In this document: positions 7,940 through 63,354 of the stretch, one piece after another
Position numbering within the stretch: the first letter of the stretch is position 1
How the letters are laid out: each line of letters starts with the position of its first letter
NCBI RefSeq assembly: GCF_001570605.1
Contig: NZ_BBXG01000007.1
Coordinates: forward strand, 118,042 to 182,041
Length of the DNA stretch: 64,000 bases
Direction: 5' to 3'
Origin: Herbidospora cretacea
GTDB lineage: Bacteria; Actinomycetota; Actinomycetes; Streptosporangiales; Streptosporangiaceae
Made by a program: the position numbers and the translations under genes
The notes under the pieces: model-generated
The model's input: only the letters and a program-made list of their open reading frames with translations
Database searches by the model: none
What the model was told of the DNA's origin: nothing

Positions 7940-9172
7940 ATGGCGCTGTGGAGAAATGGTCTAGCTGTAAGTGTCGCGGTCGCGGCCGGGATCGCCTTGG
8001 TGGCTTCGCCCGCCGGGGCCGCGCCCAAGAAGCGGCCCGCGCTGCCCGGTGACGTCAACGGTGACGGCAGGGCCGACGTCATCGCGGGTGCGCCCCTGCT
8101 CAAGGTGGGTGGCAGGACCGACGCCGGGGCTGTTGTCGTCTGGTTCGGCGGGTCCAAGGTGTCGGCCAAGGCCAGGATCGCGTCGGCGTCCAAGCCGGTC
8201 GCCAAAGAGAATCTCGGTCACGTTCTGGCGACCGCCGATTTCGACCGGGACGGTTATTCCGACGTTCTCGCCTCGGCCCGTAAGAAGATCGTCGTCTTCC
8301 GGGGTTCGGCCACCGGGCTCCGATTCAGCAAGTCGTTCGCCTGGCCGGTCACCAACGCGCCCATGCAGGCCGCCGACTTCAACGGCGACGGCTACGGTGA
8401 CGTGGCGGTGCAGGGCGACAAGGAGATCGTCGTCTTCAAAGGTGGCGGCAAAGGGCTGGCCAAGTCGGTGACGTTGAAGAACGGCGCGGCGAAATTCGGC
8501 GCCGTGCTGGCCACGGGTGACGTGAACGGCGACAAGCGCCCCGATCTCGTGGCGACCGATTTCCGGCCCGCCTATCCGGAACCCACCGGCCCGCAGAGGA
8601 TCACCGTCATTCCTGGAAACGCGAAGGGCCTGGCCATGTCGCGCGCCTGGTCGTTCGAGCCCTCCCGCCGGGACATCGTCGATGTCGTCGCCGCCGACCT
8701 GACCGGTGACGGGAAGGCCGATCTGGCGCTGGCGACCGGTGAGGGCGGGGTGCTCGTCCAGAAGAGTTCGGGATCCGGTTTCGGCACGGCTCAGGTTCTC
8801 GCCTTCGACTACTACCCCGCCAATCTGTCGGCGGGCGACGTGACCGGCGACGGCCGCGCCGACCTGGCCGTCCACGTCTCGGCCGACAACCACGACTGGG
8901 CCGAGCTCTATTCGGGCACCTCGACCGGGGTGACGAAGACGGCTTCCCGGAAATACGACCGGGAGAACTACGAGACCCAATTCGGCCGCGCGATGTGGAT
9001 CGCCGACGTGGCCGGAGACGCGAAACTCGATGTCGTTGCGGGAATGCCGGGCGTCTATGGAATCGGTGAAATCCACATTCTTCCGAAGGGAAGCTACACC
9101 GGCCTCCAGCGCCTCAAATTGAGCTCCAAAGCGAGCAATGGGCTGGGCTTCAGCCTCCCCAGTCATCCATGA
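7940..9172 (+). CDS. Secreted FG-GAP/VCBS repeat (beta-propeller) protein
   Basis: About 410 residues. A Sec-type signal peptide is seen from the ATG at 7940 (positive start, hydrophobic core, cleavage near ASPAGAA). The mature part holds seven repeats with a calcium-binding-like D-x-N/T-G-D-x-x-x-D core: DVNGDGRAD, DFDRDGYSD, DFNGDGYGD, DVNGDKRPD, DLTGDGKAD, DVTGDGRAD and the weaker DVAGDAKLD. This predicts a seven-bladed integrin-type propeller exported from the cell. A TTG at 7922 is in frame but would put extra residues before the signal; neither start has a clear ribosome site. Binding partner unknown. Confidence 0.85.
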   Translation: MALWRNGLAVSVAVAAGIALVASPAGAAPKKRPALPGDVNGDGRADVIAGAPLLKVGGRTDAGAVVVWFGGSKVSAKARIASASKPVAKENLGHVLATADFDRDGYSDVLASARKKIVVFRGSATGLRFSKSFAWPVTNAPMQAADFNGDGYGDVAVQGDKEIVVFKGGGKGLAKSVTLKNGAAKFGAVLATGDVNGDKRPDLVATDFRPAYPEPTGPQRITVIPGNAKGLAMSRAWSFEPSRRDIVDVVAADLTGDGKADLALATGEGGVLVQKSSGSGFGTAQVLAFDYYPANLSAGDVTGDGRADLAVHVSADNHDWAELYSGTSTGVTKTASRKYDRENYETQFGRAMWIADVAGDAKLDVVAGMPGVYGIGEIHILPKGSYTGLQRLKLSSKASNGLGFSLPSHP

Positions 9173-48704: not shown

Positions 48705-50012
48705 ATGTCTCACCCCCCTCGCCGCCGTGCCGCGCGGCTGCTGGTGCTCCTGATCGCCGCTTCCCTCCTGGCCGCCTGTGGTGGTGGCGAGAACACGCCG
48801 GCCCCGGGCGCCGCCAGTGGTTCGGCCGCTCCCGCCAACACCGAGCCGGTCAAGCTGACAGTCGCCCTCTTCAGTGACTTCCACTACGGGCCGCTGTACG
48901 AGGAGTTCAAGAAGACCCACCCGAACGTCGAGATCACCGAACGCCGGGCGCAGTTCAACGACCACCACAACAACCTGGTCACCCAGGTCGCCACCGGCGC
49001 GGGCGCCGCCGACATCGTCGCCGTCGAGGGCGGCTTCATCGCCACCTTCCGCGAGGTCGCCGACAAGTTCCACAACCTGAACGACTACGGCCTGAACTCC
49101 CGCCAGTCGGAGTACCTCGACTGGAAGTGGCAGCTCGGCCTGTCGAAGGACGGCTCCCAGCTCATCGGCCTCGGCACCGACGTCGGCGGCCTGGCCATGT
49201 GCTACCGGCCCGACCTCTTCAAGGAGGCCGGCCTGCCGACCAACCGCGACGAGGTCAGCGCCCTGTGGCCGACCTGGGAGCAGTACGTCGAGACCGGCAA
49301 GAAGTTCGTCGCCGCGGGCGGCAAGGCCGCCTTCACCGACGGCCCCGGTGAGCACTTCCGTGCGATGGTCGAGCAGGCCCCCGTCGGCTTCTACGACACC
49401 AGCGACAAGGTCGTCGTCGGCAGCAACCCCGACGTGCGCAAGGCCTGGGACGTCGCCGTCTCGATGATCCAGAACAAGCTGTCGGGCAAGCTCACCGCGT
49501 TCACCCCCGAGTGGACCACCGGCATCGCCAAGGGCACCTTCGCGACCATGGTCTGCCCCGCCTGGAAGACCGGCGTGATCAAGGACCAGAAGCCCGGCGA
49601 GGGCACCTGGGACATCGCGGCCGTGCCCGGCGGCGGCGGCAACCAGGGCGGCACCCACCTGCTCGCCCCCAAGCAGGGCAAGCACCCCAAGGAGGCCGCC
49701 GAGCTGATCAACTTCCTGACCAGCAAGGAGAGCCAGCTCTCCCTGTGGAAGGACGCCTCGGCCCTGCCGTCGTTGCCCGCCCTGTACACCGACCCGGCCG
49801 TCGCCGACTTCGTGAACCCCTACTTCGGCGACGCCCCCATCGGCAAGATCTTCACCGACGCCGCCAAGGCGCTGAAGCCGCAGTACACCGGCCCCAAGTC
49901 GGGTGACGTCAACGTGGCCATGGGCAACGGCCTCGGCCGCATCGAGCTCCAGGGCCAGGACCCCGAGGAAGCCTGGAAGCAGGCCGTCGCGGACTCCGAG
50001 AAGATCAAGTAG
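48705..50012 (+). CDS. Sugar ABC transporter substrate-binding lipoprotein
   Basis: 435 residues, type II signal (RLLVLLIAASLLAAC) with lipid-anchored Cys25. Extracellular solute-binding protein family 1 (SBP_bac_1): VKLTVALFSDFHYGPLYEEF, then PGEGTWDIAAVPGGGGNQGG and LAPKQGKHPKEAAELINFLT. It delivers a sugar to the two permeases downstream. A beta-glucoside (cellobiose-like) substrate is inferred from the GH1 enzyme in the same operon. First gene of five, behind LacI operators. Confidence 0.93.
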   Translation: MSHPPRRRAARLLVLLIAASLLAACGGGENTPAPGAASGSAAPANTEPVKLTVALFSDFHYGPLYEEFKKTHPNVEITERRAQFNDHHNNLVTQVATGAGAADIVAVEGGFIATFREVADKFHNLNDYGLNSRQSEYLDWKWQLGLSKDGSQLIGLGTDVGGLAMCYRPDLFKEAGLPTNRDEVSALWPTWEQYVETGKKFVAAGGKAAFTDGPGEHFRAMVEQAPVGFYDTSDKVVVGSNPDVRKAWDVAVSMIQNKLSGKLTAFTPEWTTGIAKGTFATMVCPAWKTGVIKDQKPGEGTWDIAAVPGGGGNQGGTHLLAPKQGKHPKEAAELINFLTSKESQLSLWKDASALPSLPALYTDPAVADFVNPYFGDAPIGKIFTDAAKALKPQYTGPKSGDVNVAMGNGLGRIELQGQDPEEAWKQAVADSEKIK

Positions 50013-50070
50013 CCGTACGCCGCGGGGTGGCCCCACCGGGGTCACCCCGCCTTCCCTCGAAAGGAGCGCC

Positions 50071-51036
50071 ATGGCCACGCGTGCCCCGGAACGTCCCGCG
50101 CCGCCACGGCGACCGGGAGGCAAGCGCCGGCTGACCGCCCGCCACTGGCGGCACACCGTCGACGTCAAGGCCTCCCCGTACGCGTACGTCGCCCCGTTCT
50201 TCCTGCTGTTCTGCGCCTTCGGGCTCTTCCCCATCGGCTACACGCTCTGGGTGAGCCTGCACGAGTGGACGCTGCTGGACGACGAGCACACCTTCGTGGG
50301 CCTGGAGAACTTCCGGGTCCTGCTGGCGGACTCCTACTTCTGGAACGCCACGTTCAACACGCTGTCGATCGGCCTGCTGTCGATGCTGCCGCAGCTGCTG
50401 CTGGCCCTGTGGCTGGCCCATCTGCTGAACCGGCCGCTGCGGGCGCAGAACTTCTTCCGGATCACCCTGCTGCTGCCCAACGTCACCAGCGTCGTGGCGG
50501 TCGTGGTGATCTTCTCGCAGATCTTCGGCCGCGACTTCGGCCTGATCAACTGGGTCATCACCAGCTTCGGCCTCGACGGGATCGCCTGGCGTGACGGCAC
50601 CCTGAGCTCCCACGTGGCCATCTCGACCATGATCATGTGGCGGTGGACGGGCTACAACGCGCTCATCCTGCTGGCCGCGATGCAGGCCGTACCGAGAGAG
50701 CTGTATGAGGCCGCCACCATCGACGGCGCGTCGAGCTTCACCCAGCTCCGCAAGGTCACGGTGCCGATGATCCGGCCCACGATCGCGTTCGTGGTGATCA
50801 CCTCGACCATCGGGTCGATGCAGATCTTCGCCGAGCCGCTGCTGTTCGGCGCCTACACCCTCACCGGCGGACAGGACCGGCAGTACCAGACGCTCTCGCT
50901 GTTCTTCTACGAGAACTACATGCGCCTCGACTTCGGCTTCTCCTCTGCCATCTCCTGGATGATCTTCGTCTTCATCCTGATCATCGCAGGGATCAACTAC
51001 CTGCTCACCAACAGGATGAAGGGAAGCATCCGATGA
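50071..51036 (+). CDS. Sugar ABC transporter permease 1
   Basis: 321 residues from ATG 50071 with AAGGAG 7 bases upstream (an upstream open frame to 49903 overlaps the binding-protein gene). About six membrane helices of the MalF type and the EAA loop YEAATIDGASSFTQLRKVTV (about 211-230), which docks the ATPase. The next gene overlaps by 4 bp. No ATPase gene is present, so a shared MsiK-type ATPase elsewhere in the genome is likely. Confidence 0.94.
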   Translation: MATRAPERPAPPRRPGGKRRLTARHWRHTVDVKASPYAYVAPFFLLFCAFGLFPIGYTLWVSLHEWTLLDDEHTFVGLENFRVLLADSYFWNATFNTLSIGLLSMLPQLLLALWLAHLLNRPLRAQNFFRITLLLPNVTSVVAVVVIFSQIFGRDFGLINWVITSFGLDGIAWRDGTLSSHVAISTMIMWRWTGYNALILLAAMQAVPRELYEAATIDGASSFTQLRKVTVPMIRPTIAFVVITSTIGSMQIFAEPLLFGAYTLTGGQDRQYQTLSLFFYENYMRLDFGFSSAISWMIFVFILIIAGINYLLTNRMKGSIR

Positions 51037-51857
51037 CCGGCCGTCGGGTCAACAACCGGCTGACCTACCTCACCCTGACCGCGGTCGCGTTCTTCTTCAC
51101 GATCCCGCTCTACTACTCGGTCGTGGTGGCCTCGCGCGACAACGCGTCGCTGGCGTCGGTGCCGCCGCCGCTCTTCCCCGGCGGCAACTTCTTCGAGAAC
51201 GTCTCGCGGGTCTTCGACACCGTGCCGTTCGGCCTGGCGATGCTCAACTCGGTCCTGGTGGCGGGCTCGATCTCGATCTCGGTCATGTTCTTCTCGACCC
51301 TGGCCGGCTTCGCCTTCGCCAAACTGCGCTTCCGCGGCCGCAACATCCTGCTGCTCATGACGGTCGGCACGATGATGGTGCCGACCCTGGCCGGAATCAT
51401 CCCGCTCTACATCCTCATGGTGAAGCTGGAGTGGGTCGGTTCCCTGTACGCCGTCGTCGTGCCCGCCCTGGTCAACGCGTTCGGCGTGTTCTTCATGACG
51501 CAGTTCCTGTCCCGCGCGCTGCCGACCGAGCTGCTGGAGGCGGGCCGGGTCGACGGCTGCACGACCTGGGGCCTGGTGTGGCACGTCGTCTTCCCGGCGG
51601 CCCGCCCGGCCGCCGCCGTGCTCGGCATGCTCACCTTCATGACGGCCTGGAACGACTACATGTGGCCGCTCATGGTGCTCACCCCGGAGAACCCGACGGT
51701 CCAGGTGGCGCTCTCCACCCTCGCCGCCGGTTACGTCAACGACTACGTGATGGGCCTCGCGGGGACCGCCCTCGGCACCCTGCCGCTGGTCATCGTGTTC
51801 GCCCTGCTCGGCAAGCACATCATCGGAGGAATCATGCAGGGGGCGGTCAAGGGATGA
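51033..51857 (+). CDS. Sugar ABC transporter permease 2
   Basis: 274 residues, about six membrane helices of the MalG type. EAA loop LLEAGRVDGCTTWGLVWHVV (about 168-187), with the usual second Ala changed to Arg-Val. ATG 51033 overlaps the upstream stop (ATGA). Forms a heterodimer with permease 1. The next gene overlaps it by 4 bp, so the operon is tightly coupled. Confidence 0.94.
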   Translation: MTGRRVNNRLTYLTLTAVAFFFTIPLYYSVVVASRDNASLASVPPPLFPGGNFFENVSRVFDTVPFGLAMLNSVLVAGSISISVMFFSTLAGFAFAKLRFRGRNILLLMTVGTMMVPTLAGIIPLYILMVKLEWVGSLYAVVVPALVNAFGVFFMTQFLSRALPTELLEAGRVDGCTTWGLVWHVVFPAARPAAAVLGMLTFMTAWNDYMWPLMVLTPENPTVQVALSTLAAGYVNDYVMGLAGTALGTLPLVIVFALLGKHIIGGIMQGAVKG

Positions 51858-53227
51858 CGCCGGACATCGAGTTTCCCGAGGGGTTCATCTGGGGCGCCGC
51901 CACGGCGTCGTACCAGGTGGAGGGGGCCGCCCGGGAAGACGGCCGCGGCGTGTCCATCTGGGACACCTTCGCGCGCACCCCCGGCAAGGTCGCCGACGGC
52001 CACACCGGAGACGTGGCCTGCGACCACTACCACCGCTATCCGGAGGACGTGCGTCTCATGGCCGATCTCGGCCTGGACGTCTACCGCTTCTCCACCGCCT
52101 GGCCCCGGGTCGTCCCCGACGGCTCGGGCCCGGCCAACCCCCGCGGCCTCGACTTCTACGACCGCCTGGTCGACGAGCTCCTCGCGGCGGGGATCACCCC
52201 GTACGTGACCCTCTACCACTGGGACCTGCCCCAGAACCTGGAGGACCGCGGCGGCTGGACCTCCCGCGACACCGCCTACTACTTCGCCGACTACGCGGCG
52301 GCCGTGCACGCCCGGCTCTCCGACCGGGTCTCCACCTGGACGACCCTGAACGAGCCCTGGGTCTCGGCGTTCCTCGGCTACGGCAGCGGCGTGCACGCCC
52401 CCGGCGTCACCGACCCCGCCGCGGCGTTCAAGGCGGCCCACCACCTGCTGCTCGCCCACGGCCTGGCCGCCCAGAACCTGACCGGCACCCTGGCCCTGAC
52501 GCTGAACATGGCCCCGGTCGTGACTCCGGCGCAGATCCTGGACGCGGGGATCGCGCTGTCGGGGGAGGACTCCGCCGCCGTGCACCTGGTGGACGCCCTG
52601 CTCAACCGGCAGTTCCTCGACCCGGCGCTGAAGGGGACCTACCCGGCGGAGGTCCTGGAGATCGCCGAACGCCACGGCGGCCTCGACCACATCCGCGACG
52701 GCGACCTGGACATCATCTGCCAGCCGATCGACCTGCTCGGGATCAACTACTACAACCCGTGCGTCGTCCAGGCCGCCGCCGGAGCCGTGGCCCCGACGGC
52801 CTGGCCGGGCACCGACGGCGTCGAGTTCGCCGTCATCGAGGGCCCGCAGACCTCCATGGGCTGGCCCATCATCCCGTCGGGCCTGTCCCGGCTGCTGGTG
52901 CGCCTGTCGCGCGACTACCCGGACGTCGGCCTCCTCGTCACCGAGAACGGCGCCGCCTTCCACGACAAGGTCGTCGGCGACCGGGTGCCCGACAGCGACC
53001 GGGTCTCCTACCTCGACGGTCACCTGCGCGCCTGCCACGAGGCCATCGCGGCGGGAGCCGATCTGCGCGGCTACCTCGTGTGGTCCCTTTTCGACAATTT
53101 CGAGTGGGCGGAGGGGTACCACCAGCGATTCGGTATCGTTCGAGTCGATTACGCCACTCAGCGCCGCCTGCCCAAGGACAGCGCCCTGTGGTATCGCGAC
53201 GTCATCCAGCGGAACGGCATCGAGTGA
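51854..53227 (+). CDS. GH1 beta-glucosidase
   Basis: 457 residues from ATG 51854, overlapping the permease stop by 4 bp. Glycoside hydrolase family 1: FIWGAATASYQVEGA near the start, acid/base Glu in TTLNEPW (about 166-172), nucleophile Glu in LLVTENGAAF (about 360-369). It cleaves beta-glucosides taken up by the transporter in the cytosol, since no signal peptide is present. The downstream LacI gene overlaps by 4 bp. Confidence 0.96.
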   Translation: MTPDIEFPEGFIWGAATASYQVEGAAREDGRGVSIWDTFARTPGKVADGHTGDVACDHYHRYPEDVRLMADLGLDVYRFSTAWPRVVPDGSGPANPRGLDFYDRLVDELLAAGITPYVTLYHWDLPQNLEDRGGWTSRDTAYYFADYAAAVHARLSDRVSTWTTLNEPWVSAFLGYGSGVHAPGVTDPAAAFKAAHHLLLAHGLAAQNLTGTLALTLNMAPVVTPAQILDAGIALSGEDSAAVHLVDALLNRQFLDPALKGTYPAEVLEIAERHGGLDHIRDGDLDIICQPIDLLGINYYNPCVVQAAAGAVAPTAWPGTDGVEFAVIEGPQTSMGWPIIPSGLSRLLVRLSRDYPDVGLLVTENGAAFHDKVVGDRVPDSDRVSYLDGHLRACHEAIAAGADLRGYLVWSLFDNFEWAEGYHQRFGIVRVDYATQRRLPKDSALWYRDVIQRNGIE

Positions 53228-54219
53228 AACGTCCTACCTTGGAGGCGGTCGCCGCCCGCGCCGGCGTGTCCAAGTCGACCGTCTCAAGGGTGGTCAACGG
53301 CGACACGACCGTGACGCCGAACTTCCGCGAGCTGGTGCTGCGGGCGGTGAACGAACTGGGCTACGTGCCCAACTCGGTCGCCCGCAGCCTGGTGACCCAG
53401 CGGACGAACTCGATCGCCCTGGTGGTGTCCGACCCGCCCGCCGGCCTGTTCTCCGACGACCCCATGTTCTCGGCCGTGGTGCGTTCGGCGTCGCGGGCGC
53501 TGGAGGCGGCGTCCAAGCAGGTCGTTCTGATGCTGGCCGGGTCGGACGAGAGCCGGGTGCGCGTCCAGGAGTACGTCGCCGCCGGTCACGTCGACGGCGT
53601 CATGCTCGTGTCCTTCTACGGCGCCGATCCGCTTCCAGCGGCGCTGATGCGGATGGGCCTGCCGATGGCGTCCTTCGGCAAGCCCGTCTCGGCGCCCTCG
53701 GTCCCCTACGTCGACAACGACAACCTGGGCGGGGCGCGGCAGGCCGTCGAGCACCTGCTGGCCCGGGGACGGCGGCGGATCGCCACCATCTCGGGGCCGC
53801 TCGACATGATCGCGTCCCAGGACCGGCTGACCGGGTATCGCGAGACGCTGCGCGACACGGGCCGCCGGTCGATCATCGCGGTCGGCGACTTCACCAGGGT
53901 GTCCGGGGACCAGGCGATGTGCCAGCTCCTGGAGGACGACCCCGGGCTCGACGCGGTCTTCGCGGCGAACGACCTGATGGCCATAGGAGCACTGCACGCC
54001 CTGAGACGGGCCGGCCGGCGGGTGCCGGACGACGTGGCCGTGGTCGGGTTCGACGACATAGAGGCCGCGCTCTACACCGACCCCCCGCTGACCACGGTCC
54101 GCAGCCCGATGGCCGACCAGGCGCTCGCCGTGGTCAGCCTGCTGCTGGGGCTGTTCGAGGACGGGCCCGCCGACCCGGTGATACTGCCGACGGAACTGGT
54201 GGTCCGGGAGTCGGGCTGA
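53224..54219 (+). CDS. LacI-family repressor of the beta-glucoside operon
   Basis: 331 residues from GTG 53224. The N-terminal LacI helix-turn-helix LEAVAARAGVSKSTVSRVVN (6-25) is followed by the hinge helix NSVARSLV and a periplasmic-binding-type effector domain with FAANDLMAIGAL and AVVGFDDIEAA. It is the last gene of the operon and probably binds the palindrome at 48576-48593; the sugar acts as inducer. Its own gene is therefore under its own control. Confidence 0.95.
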   Translation: MKRPTLEAVAARAGVSKSTVSRVVNGDTTVTPNFRELVLRAVNELGYVPNSVARSLVTQRTNSIALVVSDPPAGLFSDDPMFSAVVRSASRALEAASKQVVLMLAGSDESRVRVQEYVAAGHVDGVMLVSFYGADPLPAALMRMGLPMASFGKPVSAPSVPYVDNDNLGGARQAVEHLLARGRRRIATISGPLDMIASQDRLTGYRETLRDTGRRSIIAVGDFTRVSGDQAMCQLLEDDPGLDAVFAANDLMAIGALHALRRAGRRVPDDVAVVGFDDIEAALYTDPPLTTVRSPMADQALAVVSLLLGLFEDGPADPVILPTELVVRESG

Positions 54220-54633: not shown

Positions 54634-54800
54634 GTCTTGGTGCAACAACGTGATCGTCGGCTCTCTTCCGGCACAGGTCAGGCCGGGTATTCACGACGGC
54701 ACCCGTGACGTTTGCCCACAGAGGATTGATTGAACTTGTAACTAGAAGCTCTTGGGGTTATCCGCAATTCTTCCTGTTAGCAGAAAGCAGGGAGATGGCA

Positions 54801-57305
54801 GTGAATGACCAATATGAGCTTTATTGCCTCGCGGACCGGCTTTTCTATGACACCCCCGACCGGCGCGGAACCGAAATTCCCGATTTCGCCGTGGCCGGGC
54901 GTGACGTTCCGCGTGGCTGGTCCCACCAGCCGTCCGACACCTGGTTCCACTACGCCCCGACCGGCCACGATGTTCCGCCGCAGGGCTGGAAGATCCATGT
55001 GTCGGCCGGGCTGGCCGACGCGGCGCGGGTGCTGGAAATCGTCTGGGACTATTGCGTCGAGCGTGATATTCCCTTCAAATTCCTGCGCAGCCGGTCCGTT
55101 GTCACCATGCTCAACTCAAAAGGTGCCTCGCGGGGCGCGAGCGGCAAACTGGTCACCATCTACCCGCGCCAGGACTGTCTCGAACTGACGCTCAAGGAGC
55201 TCGACGGCCTGCTGGCGGGGGTACGGGGGCCGTACATCCTGAGTGATCTCCGCTACGGCGACGGGCCCCTTTTCGTGCGCTACGGAGGATTCGTGGCCCG
55301 GCGCTGCGCCGCCCCCAACGGGGAGCTCGTGCCGGCGATGGAGAACGACCGGGGCGAGCTGGTGCCCGACGAGCGGGGGCCCTCGTTCACGATCCCGCCG
55401 TGGGTGACGCTGCCCGACTTCCTCCACGCCCATCTCGAGGCCAGGAACGCGGTCACCACGACCGAGCTGCCCTACGCGGTCGACTCCGTCATGCACTTCT
55501 CCAACGGGGGCGGGGTCTACCTGGCCACCGACCGGCGGACCGGCGAGCGGGTCGTCCTCAAGGAGGCCCGGCCGATGGCGGGGCTCGACGCGTCCGAGCG
55601 TGACGCGGTGGCACGGCTCCAACACGAGCGCGACGTGCTGCGACGGCTCGACGGGCTCGACTGCGCGCCCGGCTACCGCGACTACTTCGTGCTCGGCGAC
55701 CACCACTTCCTGGTGATGGAGTTCGTCGACGCCACGCCGCTGCAGCGCACGCTGGTCCGCACGTTCCCGCTGACCAGGGCCGACGCCTCGGCCGGGTCGA
55801 TCGCCGAATACACCGTCTGGGCGCTCGACACGCTGCCAAAGGTCCAGGCCGCCGTCGCGGCGCTCCACGAACGGGGCGTCGTCTTCTGCGACCTCCATCC
55901 GAACAACATCCTGATCACGCCCGACGGGCGGCTCGTCCTCATCGACTTCGAGGTGGCGACGTTCGCCGAGGACCTCGGCCGGTCGGTGCTGGCCCATCCG
56001 GCCTTCCAGGCGCCCGCCGACCGGCGGGGCACCGACGTCGACCACTACGCCCTGGCCTGTCTCACGCTGGGCCTGTTCGCGCCGCAGCTCACGATCACCG
56101 TGCCGCTGGCGCGGGCCAAGGCGGCCCAGCTCGGGCAGATGATCGTCGACACCTTCCCGGTGCCGGCCGAGCTGATCAAACGGGCCGTCCACACGATCAC
56201 CGGGGCCCTCGGGGGCGGGCCCACGGTGAGCGTGACCAGCGGCGATCCGATGACGGCGATGGCGCGGGCGATCCTGGCCAGCGCCACCCCCCACCGCGCC
56301 GACCGGCTGTTCCCCGGCGACGTCGCCCAGTTCCGGCCCGGCGGCGGGATCAACATGGCCCACGGCGCGGCCGGGGTGCTGTTCGCGCTCGACGCGTCGG
56401 GGGCCGGACGGTTCCCCGACCACGAAGAGTGGCTCCTGCGCCAGCAGGGCGAGGCCCCGCCCGGCTTCTACGACGGGCTCCACGGCGTCGCCTACGTCCT
56501 CGACCGGTTCGGGCACGTCGACAGGGCGCTCGACCTCGTCGACCGGGCCATGGCCGGCCCGTGGCGCGATCTCGACCTCAGCCTCTGGTCGGGGCTGCCC
56601 GGCATCGGGCTCAACCTGCTCCACCTGGGGCTCGACGCCCAGCCGCTGGTCGAACTCTGCGCCGACCGGCTGCCCGCCGACGTGCCGGAGATCTCCGGCG
56701 GCGCCAACCCCAGAGCCGGTCTTCTCCACGGCCTGAGCGGCCCCGCCCTCCTCTTCCTGCGCGCCTACGACCACACCCGCGACCCCGCCCTGCTCGACCT
56801 GGCCGAACACGCGCTGCGCCTCGACCTGAAACGGTGCACGACCACCGCCGACGGATCGCTGCAGGTCGACCAGGGCTGGCGGACGCTGCCCTACCTCGAC
56901 GAGGGGTCGGTCGGCATCGCGATCGCGCTGGCCGACCTGCTCCGCCACCGGCCCGGGTCACCCCTGGCCGCCGCGCTGCCCGACCTGGTGAAAGTGGGCC
57001 GCTGCCGCTTCTTCGTGCAGCCCGGCCTGTTCTCCGGGCGGGCCGGCATGATCCTGGCCGACCGGACGCTGATCCCCGGCCTCGACTGGCACATCCTTCC
57101 CTACCGCGACGGGATCGCCTTCCCCGGCGACCAGCTGCTCCGGCTGTCGATGGACTTCGCGACCGGCACCGCCGGCGTCCTCTACGCCCTCAGCGGCAAC
57201 CCGTTGCCCTTCACACATCCACTCGGCGCGGAGCCCCACGCCGTGCCCGGTGGCGCCCCCCCGCACCCACCGGCCAAGGAGGTGATCGGGGCCCCGAACA
57301 GCTAG
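54801..57305 (+). CDS. Class III lanthipeptide synthetase (LanKC)
   Basis: 834 residues from GTG 54801, with GGGAG six bases upstream (ATG 54795 is too close to it). Three domains: N-terminal lyase (1-215, SGKLVTIYPRQD about 113), Ser/Thr kinase (about 220-480: VVLK with Lys254, VVFCDLHPNNIL with catalytic Asp364, LIDFEVATF with Asp382) and a LanC-like cyclase (about 515-834: MAHGAAGVLFAL, GLPGIGLNLL, GLLHGLSGPALL, TGTAGVLYAL). The zinc Cys-Cys-His ligands of class I, II and IV cyclases are absent, which defines class III (RamC, LabKC). The kinase-lyase pair forms dehydroalanines. Confidence 0.95.
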   Translation: MNDQYELYCLADRLFYDTPDRRGTEIPDFAVAGRDVPRGWSHQPSDTWFHYAPTGHDVPPQGWKIHVSAGLADAARVLEIVWDYCVERDIPFKFLRSRSVVTMLNSKGASRGASGKLVTIYPRQDCLELTLKELDGLLAGVRGPYILSDLRYGDGPLFVRYGGFVARRCAAPNGELVPAMENDRGELVPDERGPSFTIPPWVTLPDFLHAHLEARNAVTTTELPYAVDSVMHFSNGGGVYLATDRRTGERVVLKEARPMAGLDASERDAVARLQHERDVLRRLDGLDCAPGYRDYFVLGDHHFLVMEFVDATPLQRTLVRTFPLTRADASAGSIAEYTVWALDTLPKVQAAVAALHERGVVFCDLHPNNILITPDGRLVLIDFEVATFAEDLGRSVLAHPAFQAPADRRGTDVDHYALACLTLGLFAPQLTITVPLARAKAAQLGQMIVDTFPVPAELIKRAVHTITGALGGGPTVSVTSGDPMTAMARAILASATPHRADRLFPGDVAQFRPGGGINMAHGAAGVLFALDASGAGRFPDHEEWLLRQQGEAPPGFYDGLHGVAYVLDRFGHVDRALDLVDRAMAGPWRDLDLSLWSGLPGIGLNLLHLGLDAQPLVELCADRLPADVPEISGGANPRAGLLHGLSGPALLFLRAYDHTRDPALLDLAEHALRLDLKRCTTTADGSLQVDQGWRTLPYLDEGSVGIAIALADLLRHRPGSPLAAALPDLVKVGRCRFFVQPGLFSGRAGMILADRTLIPGLDWHILPYRDGIAFPGDQLLRLSMDFATGTAGVLYALSGNPLPFTHPLGAEPHAVPGGAPPHPPAKEVIGAPNS

Positions 57306-57364
57306 CTCCACCTTTCTAAGATCTCGAATTCCTCCCGATAGACATCTCACAAAGGAGCATGACC

Positions 57365-57511
57365 ATGGTTCTTCTCGACCTTCAGGCGATGGAGCTTCCC
57401 GGCGGCGGTCACCCCGGTGGCGGCGGTCACGGCGGCGGCGGCAGCACGCTGACCCTGCTCGGCTGCGCGTCCCAGACGCCCAGCAACCTGAGCCTGCTGC
57501 TCTGCCACTAG
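57365..57511 (+). CDS. Class III lanthipeptide precursor peptide with Gly/His-rich leader
   Basis: 48 residues; ATG 57365 with AAAGGAG seven bases upstream (an ATG six bases earlier is too close to that site). The leader opens MVLLDLQAME, whose L-x-x-L-Q box is the recognition site of class III synthetases, as in SapB. It then runs into a stretch made mostly of Gly with three His and two Pro (11-26). The core (about 27-48) has two units, S27-x2-T30-x3-C34 and S40-x2-S43-x3-C47, the spacing that gives labionin or lanthionine rings in labyrinthopeptin and SapB. Too short for many gene callers; stands 59 bp after the LanKC stop. Confidence 0.92.
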   Translation: MVLLDLQAMELPGGGHPGGGGHGGGGSTLTLLGCASQTPSNLSLLLCH

Positions 57512-57522
57512 GCACCCGATCG

Positions 57523-57552
57523 GGGCCCTGGGCTCGCGGGAGCTCAGGGCCC
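57523..57552 (+). terminator. Attenuator hairpin between precursor and ABC genes
   Basis: GGGCCCTG (57523-57530) pairs with CAGGGCCC (57545-57552), with an inner GCTC/GAGC stem. It begins 12 bases after the precursor stop. A partial stop here would give more precursor message than transporter message, as in other lanthipeptide clusters. No T-run beyond TCCCTTG. Confidence 0.65.
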
Positions 57553-57613
57553 TCCCTTGTTCATGCGCAGTTGTTCGTTCAGTTCTCGCCCACGTGAAGA
57601 GAGGGACCCGGCG

Positions 57614-59209
57614 TTGCGGACGGCCGATCGGCTGACAGCCGAGGCGATCAGGCGGAGCGGGCCCGCGGCGGGCGTGCTCGCCGCTGTCGCGCTGGCCGGC
57701 GCCGGCCTTGAGCTGGCGCTGCCGTTCGTGCTCGGCCGCGCCGTCGACACCTTCTCTCCCTCCTGGGTGGCGTTGGCCGGGGCCGTCGTGGTGCTCCTCG
57801 TCGCCTGCGACGGTCTCGGCGTCTACGCGAGCGGGACCGGTGGCGCGCGGGCGGCGGCCTGGCTGCGTCACCGGACGCTCACCCATCTGCTGGGCGTCGG
57901 CCCCGGGGTGACCCGGCGGATCCCCGAGGGCGACCTGGTCACCCGGCTCGGCGTCAACGCCGAGGAGGCGGGGCGGGCCGGTGACGCGATGGTCGCGTCG
58001 GTGGCGCTCGTGGTGCCGTCGGCCGGGGCGCTCGTGCTGCTGGTGCTGATCGATCCGTGGCTGGCGCTGACGCTGGCGGGCGGGCTGGTCGTGATCGCCT
58101 TCGTGCTGAAGCGGTTTCTGAAGACGTCCACGGTGATCGCCGGGGGCTACCAGGAGGCGCAGGCCGACATCGCGTCCCGGCTGGTCGAGGCGGTCGCCGG
58201 GGCCCGCACCATCGCCGCCGCCGGGACCGCCGAGCGGGAGACCTCGCGGGTGCTGACCGCGCTGCCGGTGGTCCGGGGCCACGCGATGGCGCTGTGGCGG
58301 GCCAACGCCGACGCGGGGGCGCGGGCCGCGATCGTGGTGCCGCTGCTTGAGGTGCTGGTGCTGGCCGTAGGCGGCTGGCGGCTGTCGGCCGGGGAACTCT
58401 CGGTCGGCGAGCTCTACGCCGCCGCCCGCTATGTGGTCATCGGCGCGGGCCTGGGGCCCGCGATCGGATCACTCGGGCGGCTGGCCCGCGCCCGCGCGGC
58501 CGGCGCGCGGCTGGCGGAGATCCTCGACGAGTGCCCCCGGACCCACGGGGTGCGGACGCTGCCCGCCGGACCCGGAAGACTGACCTTCCACGACGTCCCC
58601 GGCCTCGCACTGGAGATCCCGGGCGGCGCCTCGGTGGCCGTGGTCGGCGCCGGGGCCGCCCGGTTCGCGCGTCTCGCGGCGCGCCTCGACGACCCGGAGA
58701 GCGGTGAGGTCCTGCTCGACGGCGTGCCCCTGCGGTCGCTGACCCGCGCGTCGCTCCGCGCCGCCGTCGGCTATGCCGTCGCCCGGCCCCATCTGGTCGG
58801 CGACACCGTCGCCGACGCGATCGGCGGCTCCCGTCCCGCGGCCGTGGCCGCCGGGGCCGACGACTTCGTCCGCCGCCTGCCCCACGGCTACCAGACCGCC
58901 CTCGCCGAGGCCCCCCTGTCGGGCGGCGAACGCCAGCGGCTCGGCCTGGCCAGGGCGTTCGCGAAGGGCAACCGGCTGCTGGTGCTCGACGACGCCACAT
59001 CCAGCCTCGACACCATCACCGAGCGGCAGGTCTCCAACGCCCTGTCCGCCGACGCCCGCACCCGCGTCACGGTGACCCACCGGGCCGCCGTCGCCGCGCG
59101 GGCCGACCGGGTGGTCTGGCTCCACGACGGGCGGCTGCGCGGCTTCGACCGCCATCTCGCGCTGTGGCACGACCCGGCCTACCGGGCCGTCTTCCAGGGG
59201 GGCGCGTGA
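57614..59209 (+). CDS. Half ABC exporter, subunit 1, with degenerate Walker A (RamA/RamB-like)
   Basis: About 531 residues from TTG 57614, chosen because GAGAGGG lies 8 bases before it; ATG 57563 is in frame but has no ribosome site. Membrane domain of about six helices (20-300) and an ATPase domain. The Walker A is broken: VVGAGAARFARL in place of G-x-x-G-x-G-K-S/T. The Walker B end is DDATS rather than DEATS, and the Q-loop Gln is missing (VARPHLV). The signature LSGGERQRL (about 435) and H-loop His are intact. This suits one half of a heterodimer. Overlaps the partner gene by 4 bp. Confidence 0.88.
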   Translation: MRTADRLTAEAIRRSGPAAGVLAAVALAGAGLELALPFVLGRAVDTFSPSWVALAGAVVVLLVACDGLGVYASGTGGARAAAWLRHRTLTHLLGVGPGVTRRIPEGDLVTRLGVNAEEAGRAGDAMVASVALVVPSAGALVLLVLIDPWLALTLAGGLVVIAFVLKRFLKTSTVIAGGYQEAQADIASRLVEAVAGARTIAAAGTAERETSRVLTALPVVRGHAMALWRANADAGARAAIVVPLLEVLVLAVGGWRLSAGELSVGELYAAARYVVIGAGLGPAIGSLGRLARARAAGARLAEILDECPRTHGVRTLPAGPGRLTFHDVPGLALEIPGGASVAVVGAGAARFARLAARLDDPESGEVLLDGVPLRSLTRASLRAAVGYAVARPHLVGDTVADAIGGSRPAAVAAGADDFVRRLPHGYQTALAEAPLSGGERQRLGLARAFAKGNRLLVLDDATSSLDTITERQVSNALSADARTRVTVTHRAAVAARADRVVWLHDGRLRGFDRHLALWHDPAYRAVFQGGA

Positions 59210-62751: not shown

Positions 62752-63240
62752 TCAGGCCGACCGCTGCAGGAGCAGGGCCATCGCGGCGGGCGGGGCGGTG
62801 GTCAGGGACATCTCGAACCAGACCTTGTTGCGGCCGCCCTCGCGGACGATGCCCCACCGGTCGGCCAGGGCGTCGAGCAGCGGCAGGCCCCGGCCGTTGG
62901 TGGCGGTCGCGGTCGAGTGGCCGGCACACGGCGGTTCGGCCGAGCCGTCGTCCTGGACGCAGACCCGCACCTCGTCGGAGGAGAACCAGACCGTCACGGT
63001 GAACACGCCGCCGTCGCCGGATCTGGAGTGGACGACCGCGTTCGTGGCGATCTCACTCGTGAGCAGCACGCAGTCGTCGTGGAGCGGGTGGTCCCTGCCG
63101 ATCGTGGCCGAGACGAGCCGCCGGGCCAGGACGATCTGGTCGCGGCCCCCCGCGAGCCGGGCGACCCTGGCGGCCCGGAGATCGGTGGTGATAGTCGTGT
63201 CGATGGAGTCGAGTGTGGTGACGTTCCCCGAACCGTTCAT
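62752..63240 (-). CDS. HATPase anti-sigma-type kinase (RsbW/SpoIIAB-like)
   Basis: 162 residues from the minus-strand ATG 63240, with GAGGAGG four bases upstream. The HATPase fold is marked by an N-box LLTSEIATNAVVHS (about 58-71), the DDGS motif in VRVCVQDDGS (about 90-99) and the G2 loop NGRGLPLLDALAD (about 115). Such proteins bind sigma factors or their antagonists and phosphorylate them on Ser. No partner is adjacent; the STAS protein at 2281 is a remote candidate. Converges on the peptidase with an 8-bp gap. Confidence 0.85.
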   Translation of the reverse strand: MNGSGNVTTLDSIDTTITTDLRAARVARLAGGRDQIVLARRLVSATIGRDHPLHDDCVLLTSEIATNAVVHSRSGDGGVFTVTVWFSSDEVRVCVQDDGSAEPPCAGHSTATATNGRGLPLLDALADRWGIVREGGRNKVWFEMSLTTAPPAAMALLLQRSA

Positions 63241-63354
63241 GCGTCCTCCTCGATGACTGCGCAATGAAGACGCGCCACCACGGCGTCCGAGATGTCACGC
63301 GAAGGTGCGACTGTGCTTCCCTGAGGGAACCGGCGCTGCCGTAGTGTCGGGACC

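What the first reader, a model, noticed from the sequence alone, without database searches (positions are those of the whole stretch)
57365..57511. Unusual Gly/His-rich leader in a class III precursor
After the L-x-x-L-Q recognition box, leader residues 11-26 are nearly all Gly with His at 16, 22 and Pro at 12, 17. Known class III leaders (SapB, labyrinthopeptin) are acidic and mixed. A flexible His-bearing linker could bind metal, or simply present the Pro sites to the peptidase. I do not know of a described precursor with this linker.
Basis: partly seen in the sequence, partly recalled or inferred. Interest (0 to 1): 0.75.

Follow-up and report, generated by a model that had tools for sequence, protein, structure and literature searches.

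The report
SapB-like precursor with common Gly/His linker
The gene encodes a member of a known bacterial peptide family (SapB/AmfS lanthipeptides), and its odd glycine/histidine leader turns out to be common in relatives, most likely a flexible tether that a neighbouring proline-cutting enzyme helps to remove.

Summary
In detail: 57365-57511 encodes MVLLDLQAMELPGGGHPGGGGHGGGGSTLTLLGCASQTPSNLSLLLCH, with an LxxLQ box and a linker (residues 11-26) of 11 Gly, 2 His, 2 Pro, 1 Leu. It is not peculiar to this precursor. The peptide matches NF033212 (SapB/AmfS) and PF19402 (RamS) over its whole length, far above the curated cut-offs. Of 118 related loci read, 69 carry a linker of at least 60% Gly+His.

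The cluster (genus Herbidospora) is LanKC, LanA, two ABC genes and a prolyl oligopeptidase (POP). POP follows the core type (C-x-S-x-x-P-S-N-L-S...C-H): 43 of 43 assessable loci, against 0 of 74 others (two of those on stretches too short to judge). It does not follow the Gly/His linker (39 with POP, 30 without). L185, nested inside the POP clade, lacks POP, leader Pro12 and core Pro together.

Best reading: LanKC holds the LxxLQ helix, the Gly tract is a flexible tether, and POP cuts after Pro12 as reported for FlaP. Unexplained: a His is kept in most linkers, usually 2-4 residues after Pro12. Metal binding is untested.

The parts
54705..57305 (+). LanKC, class III lanthionine synthetase (lyase/kinase/cyclase); exact GTG start not settled
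   Evidence: NF038151 1004 bits against a cut-off of 575; PF25816 RamC_N; Pkinase; LANC_like; aligns to ThurKC and SalKC structures
57351..57357 (+). Shine-Dalgarno AAAGGAG, 7 nt before the start codon at 57365
   Evidence: sequence; ggag kept in all 7 Herbidospora loci aligned
57365..57511 (+). lanA precursor gene (48 aa), SapB/AmfS/RamS family
   Evidence: NF033212 56.3 bits (cut-off 25), PF19402 55 bits (cut-off 24.3), both over the full length
57371..57385 (+). LanKC recognition box L3-L-D-L-Q7
   Evidence: translation; by comparison with the ThurKC leader helix (PMC10604976)
57395..57442 (+). Gly/His linker, residues 11-26; Pro12 codon 57398-57400 is the proposed POP cut, Pro17 codon 57413-57415 a second possible one
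   Evidence: translation; Pro12 in 77 of 77 type-A precursors
57443..57508 (+). core, residues 27-48, STLTLLGCASQTPSNLSLLLCH: two S/T-x2-S/T-x3-C ring motifs separated by A-S-Q-T-P
   Evidence: consensus of 38 unique type-A cores
57522..57553 (+). hairpin between lanA and ABC1, possible transcript-end or attenuation signal
   Evidence: -31.3 kcal/mol, z -2.9, 0 of 200 shuffles as stable; both arms present in all 7 Herbidospora loci aligned
57557..59209 (+). ABC transporter 1 (membrane + ATPase); no C39 peptidase domain reported
   Evidence: PF00664, PF00005
59164..60855 (+). ABC transporter 2; only the ATPase domain is recognised by Pfam
   Evidence: PF00005
60852..62744 (+). prolyl oligopeptidase, S9 (LanPB/FlaP-like), 630 aa; its ATG overlaps the ABC2 stop (ATGA)
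   Evidence: PF02897 and PF00326 (on the longer ORF); 2bkl prolyl endopeptidase 393 bits, Ser/Asp/His motif regions aligned; overlap read

Best explanation
This is a SapB/AmfS-type class III lanthipeptide cluster of a Herbidospora. LanKC binds the helical LxxLQ box of the leader. The Gly-rich stretch behind it is a disordered tether that lets the core reach the kinase, lyase and cyclase sites. The core is dehydrated and closed at S27-T30-C34 and S40-S43-C47, and the ABC proteins export it. The clustered prolyl oligopeptidase then cuts after leader Pro12 (possibly Pro17), as FlaP is reported to do after Pro(-12), and an aminopeptidase trims the Gly/His remnant. Shown: family membership, gene order, POP identity, perfect co-occurrence of POP with this core type. 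Inferred: tether role, cut site, trimming, export order, ring pattern.
For: Full-length family matches. LanKC equivalog match, and the ThurKC residues reported to contact the leader Gln (Arg112, Tyr243, Glu258) are conserved in the alignment (positions counted by hand, chain offset of 3 inferred). In ThurKC the leader after the Gln leaves the helix as an extended coil, its last ten residues are not resolved, L(-13)A had no effect, and leader fusions with (GS) linkers of 7 or 10 residues were used (PMC10604976: passages; section 12). Gly/His linkers occur in 69 of 118 loci with 9-17 residues and variable make-up. POP is present in 43 of 43 assessable loci with the PSNLS-type core and in 0 of 74 others. 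Pro12 occurs in 77 of 77 type-A precursors, with 8-15 residues between it and the first ring Ser, which brackets FlaP's Pro(-12) (FlaP passage). The clustered POPs separate from 22 other POPs by one branch (100*). In L185, nested in the clade, POP, Pro12 and the core Pro are absent together.
Against: Pro12 is equally invariant (47 of 47) in type B, which has Gly/His linkers and no POP within the fetched stretch, so Pro12 alone does not imply a clustered POP. L185 still has a Pro at 17, two residues before its core. The co-occurrence rests on about one gain and one loss on the LanKC tree, so it is not many independent events. In Brevibacterium, flaP-like genes occur in six clusters but only one of six precursors has a leader Pro (PMC5719810 passage). 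A pure spacer does not explain why His is kept.
Confidence: 0.68

Rival explanations
1. The POP cuts inside the core, after the invariant Pro39 between the two rings, releasing two one-ring peptides.
For: POP presence follows the core type with the Pro (43 of 43 against 0 of 74), while leader Pro12 also occurs without POP. The core Pro is in 38 of 38 unique type-A cores. L185 lacks both the core Pro and POP.
Against: The next residue (S40) becomes a ring residue, which should hinder cleavage (inference). FlaP, the reported precedent, cuts in the leader. Core and POP share one clade, so descent alone can give the match.
Confidence: 0.1
2. The linker His is a working metal (Cu/Ni/Zn) site, in the leader or in the N-terminal remnant after cleavage at Pro12.
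For: His is the commonest non-Gly residue in 74 unique linkers (85 His against 13 residues one base from GGC/GGT). Most linkers keep one (64 of 77 type A, 41 of 47 type B). A copper-binding class III peptide, noursin, exists and binds only after leader removal (PMC10206099 passages).
Against: 13 of 77 type-A and 6 of 47 type-B precursors have no linker His; most have one only; H to Y occurs within Herbidospora (L032, L033). An N-terminal Gly-Gly-His after a Pro12 cut is typical of type B, which lacks the clustered POP; type A mostly has Gly3-4-His.
Confidence: 0.07
3. The Gly/His tract is a neutral low-complexity expansion made by slippage in GC-rich DNA, with no function.
For: Length varies from 9 to 17 residues in types A and B, and type-A loci with an Ala/Ser/Gly linker (L101, L104, L105, L109) still have intact gene clusters.
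Against: Gly codons avoid GGG/GGA very strongly (29 of 973 against 2078 of 6109); the codons are mixed GGC/GGT; His is retained and placed non-randomly (0 of 20000 simulations as tight).
Confidence: 0.12

Closest known systems
SapB/AmfS (RamS) class III lanthipeptides, NF033212 / PF19402
   Same: full-length profile match, LLDLQ box, two ring motifs, LanKC and two ABC genes alongside
   Different: Gly/His linker in place of the acidic stretch; core with an inter-ring P-S-N-L-S and a C-terminal CH; clustered POP
Flavipeptin, FlaA/FlaP (Kribbella flavida)
   Same: class III cluster with its own POP; a leader Pro at a comparable distance from the core (passage in PMC10885120)
LanPB prolyl oligopeptidases of class III clusters (Walker et al. 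2020, PMC7268733, passages)
   Same: POP-family protease in a class III cluster
   Different: those described there are from Streptococcus pneumoniae family III 3, together with a CAAX protease
Noursin (NorA/NorKC/NorP), PMC10206099
   Same: class III cluster with an S9 peptidase; His is functional
   Different: His lies in the core and forms a histidinobutyrine; the core has one Cys; NorKC homologues are a separate synthetase subgroup

Membership tests
SapB/AmfS lanthipeptide precursor (NF033212, PF19402) | profile match above the curated cut-off | tested here: met
   56.3 against 25 bits and 55 against 24.3 bits, full length
SapB/AmfS lanthipeptide precursor (NF033212, PF19402) | two S/T-x2-S/T-x3-C ring motifs in the core | tested here: met
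   STLTLLGC and SNLSLLLC
SapB/AmfS lanthipeptide precursor (NF033212, PF19402) | morphogenetic activity of the mature peptide | not testable with these tools
   needs production of the peptide and a bald-mutant assay
Class III lanthipeptide system | LanKC synthetase next to the precursor | tested here: met
   NF038151 1004 bits against 575; class IV model 354 bits against a cut-off of 650
FlaP/LanPB leader protease | S9 prolyl oligopeptidase with the catalytic motifs, in the cluster | tested here: met
   2bkl 393 bits with Ser, Asp and His motif regions aligned; ATGA overlap with ABC2
FlaP/LanPB leader protease | cuts the modified precursor after a leader Pro | not testable with these tools
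   needs an enzyme assay
FlaP/LanPB leader protease | sequence kinship with FlaP itself | not tested
   no named Kribbella flavida record was fetched
Double-glycine leader cut by a C39 (PCAT) transporter | C39 peptidase domain on the ABC transporter | tested here: not met
   Pfam at E up to 0.1 lists no C39 domain in ABC1 or ABC2
Noursin-type LanKC-Hbt | NorKC-subgroup cyclase and a histidinobutyrine crosslink | not tested
   NorKC was not fetched; the chemistry needs mass spectrometry or NMR

The most novel reading that the evidence does not exclude
The Pro12-Gly(2-5)-His element is a working part and not a spacer detail: a second contact with LanKC, or a His that binds copper or adds to a dehydrobutyrine from T28/T30, so that part of the linker stays in the mature, POP-released peptide.
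Probability: 0.07. Interest if true: 0.7.

Novelty: new member of a known kind. Interest (0 to 1): 0.33.

Why it matters
It replaces a supposed singular oddity with a family-level pattern: in the Streptosporangiaceae-type relatives sampled, Gly/His tethers are common in SapB/AmfS precursors, and one core type travels with its own prolyl oligopeptidase. That gives a ready test set for which Pro the protease uses, and L185 is a natural case in which POP and both conserved prolines are absent together. It also gives candidate POP/LanKC pairs for making SapB-like peptides with the protease supplied.

Tried and rejected
Chance run from GC-rich DNA: rejected by the homologues, by 1 of 935 frames and by codon choice. 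Start-codon error: rejected. C39 double-glycine cleavage: no C39 domain found by Pfam. POP linked to the Gly/His linker: rejected as the driver (39 with POP, 30 without; and 4 type-A loci with POP lack the linker). POP linked to leader Pro alone: rejected (43 with POP, 50 without). Exposed Gly-Gly-His copper site after a Pro12 cut: weak, because it is typical of type B, which lacks the clustered POP. My first count of the Pro-to-His gap (sd 0.80 in type A) took the nearest Pro in one linker; counted strictly from Pro12 the sd is 1.26, with correlations to linker length of 0.43 (Pro-His) and 0.76 (His-core), so the anchoring is weaker than I first thought, though still non-random. The FlaA sequence could not be obtained from any held paper.

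Sample limits: loci were taken from the best-scoring PF19402 matches, not at random. 119 stretches (the window, L031-L110, L157-L196 without L186 and L188) went in; L179 gave no precursor by my pattern, leaving 118. L110 (contig ends) was left out of the POP tables. L058 and L103 have only 4.5 and 4.0 kb downstream, so POP absence is not shown there. Twenty further LanKC loci without a PF19402 match (L230-L249) were looked at apart and are not in the 118; one of them, L242, has a distant POP.

Full report
Observation. Start codon, ribosome-binding site and frame hold up. The linker is exceptional within the window (1 of 935 stop-to-stop frames).

Identity. The peptide matches NF033212 (56.3 bits, cut-off 25) and PF19402 RamS (55 bits, cut-off 24.3) over its whole length. 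Upstream lies LanKC (NF038151, 1004 bits, cut-off 575). Downstream lie two ABC genes and a 630-residue prolyl oligopeptidase whose ATG overlaps the ABC2 stop. The POP's best solved relative is a prolyl endopeptidase (2bkl, 393 bits), with the Ser, Asp and His motif regions aligned. Six named Herbidospora species carry LanKC at 89-92% identity, so the window is from that genus. The window genome has one NF033212 match, three M1-peptidase matches that could trim a remnant and a second POP at 56% identity.

Relatives. PF19402 rings in 157 of 297 genomes of the family and 48 of 394 of the class. I read 118 loci with 181 precursors, chosen from the best-scoring matches. Linkers of at least 60% Gly+His occur in 69 of 118 loci (120 of 181 precursors, 79 different linkers). 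The main core types are: A (S-[TS]-L-T...C-x-S-x-x-P-S-N-L-S...C-H; 44 loci, 77 precursors, including the window), B (...TPHENSSLS..CG; 25 loci, 47 precursors), C (SapB-like, 22 loci, 24 precursors) and smaller groups. Gly/His linkers are found in A (72 of 77), B (43 of 47), D (3 of 6) and two others; none of the 24 type-C precursors reaches the threshold.

Protease. POP is present in 43 of 43 assessable type-A loci and in 0 of 74 others (no tblastn hit at E up to 1e-5; two of the 74, L058 and L103, are too short downstream to judge). Gly/His linker against POP: 39 with, 30 without, 4 POP without linker, 44 neither. Leader Pro against POP: 43, 50, 0, 24. His against POP: 37, 45, 6, 29. So POP follows the core type. 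On a LanKC tree of 120 rows, type A needs 2 changes, the Gly/His linker 7, and POP 3, one of the three rows being the truncated L110 (quick tree, no bootstrap). L185, nested in the type-A clade beside L074, L091 and L092 (99*), has precursor MALLDLQALESATKGGPDSTVSLLLCSHHDSTLSAVC: no Pro12, no core Pro, no Gly/His linker, no POP; it does have a Pro at 17. Nine ORFs scanned around it show ABC genes but no peptidase. The 43 clustered POPs are one side of a branch against 22 other POPs (100*). In L173-L175, from another family code, the POP follows the precursor directly. Reading side by side, the eight class-level genomes with a listed POP within 15 kb of LanKC are all type A; the list is capped. 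L242 is a different case: a distant POP (45% over 198 bits; PF00326 134 bits) beside a LanKC and a precursor ending DAP-FSSISYFACH, with its Pro just before the ring motif.

Mechanism. In ThurKC the leader is held as a helix ending near the LxxLQ Gln, the rest leaves as an extended coil thought to let the core shuttle, and the last ten residues are not resolved (PMC10604976; passages; section 12). Arg112, Tyr243 and Glu258, which contact that Gln, and Phe306 are conserved in the window LanKC; Trp302 is replaced by Gly (my hand count). A Gly tract behind the box suits that coil. FlaP cuts modified FlaA after Pro(-12) (PMC10885120 passage); in type A, Pro12 lies 8-15 residues before the first ring Ser. 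FlaA homologues with FlaP-like proteases are reported in Kribbella, Streptomyces, Amycolatopsis and Jiangella (PMC8960859 passage). Against a simple rule: Pro12 is invariant in POP-less type B, and Brevibacterium flaP-like clusters mostly lack a leader Pro (PMC5719810 passage).

His. His makes up 85 of the residues after Pro in 74 unique A/B linkers, against 13 of the kinds one base from GGC/GGT. With one His per linker, the gap from Pro12 is 3-4 in 23 of 30 type-A and 2 in 15 of 22 type-B unique linkers; no simulation with random placement was as tight (0 of 20000 each; related sequences, so not a probability). His is therefore kept, for a reason I cannot give; 19 of 124 A/B precursors lack it.

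Print. Searches with 'glycine-rich', Herbidospora, Nonomuraea, prolyl oligopeptidase and flavipeptin turned up no description of this linker in the open library; I saw listings and passages only, and supplements were not available. The SapB/AmfS group is said to hold over 4,000 annotated sequences (PMC13380574 passage).

Verdict. A true observation on an ordinary member of a known family; the interesting remainder is the tie of POP to one core type and the retained His.

Noticed in passing
57522-57553: Strong hairpin between lanA and ABC1 (-31.3 kcal/mol), both arms present in all seven Herbidospora loci aligned; may set precursor to transporter ratio.
   Followed up: partly
L185 (precursor at 9111, minus strand): Locus nested in the POP clade that lacks POP, Pro12, the core Pro and the Gly/His linker.
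   Followed up: partly
L242:1528-10335: Different class III cluster with a distant POP, an FtsX-like permease and an MFS gene; the precursor has its Pro just before the ring motif.
   Followed up: partly
L231:7214-7798 (minus strand): Second class III cluster of a Herbidospora genome with five different small precursor-like ORFs in tandem.
   Followed up: no
49903-54219: Upstream sugar-use genes: two permease-type ORFs (PF00528), a GH1 glycosidase and a LacI-type regulator; apparently unrelated to the cluster.
   Followed up: no
62752-63264: Minus-strand HATPase_c_2 protein just behind the POP gene.
   Followed up: no
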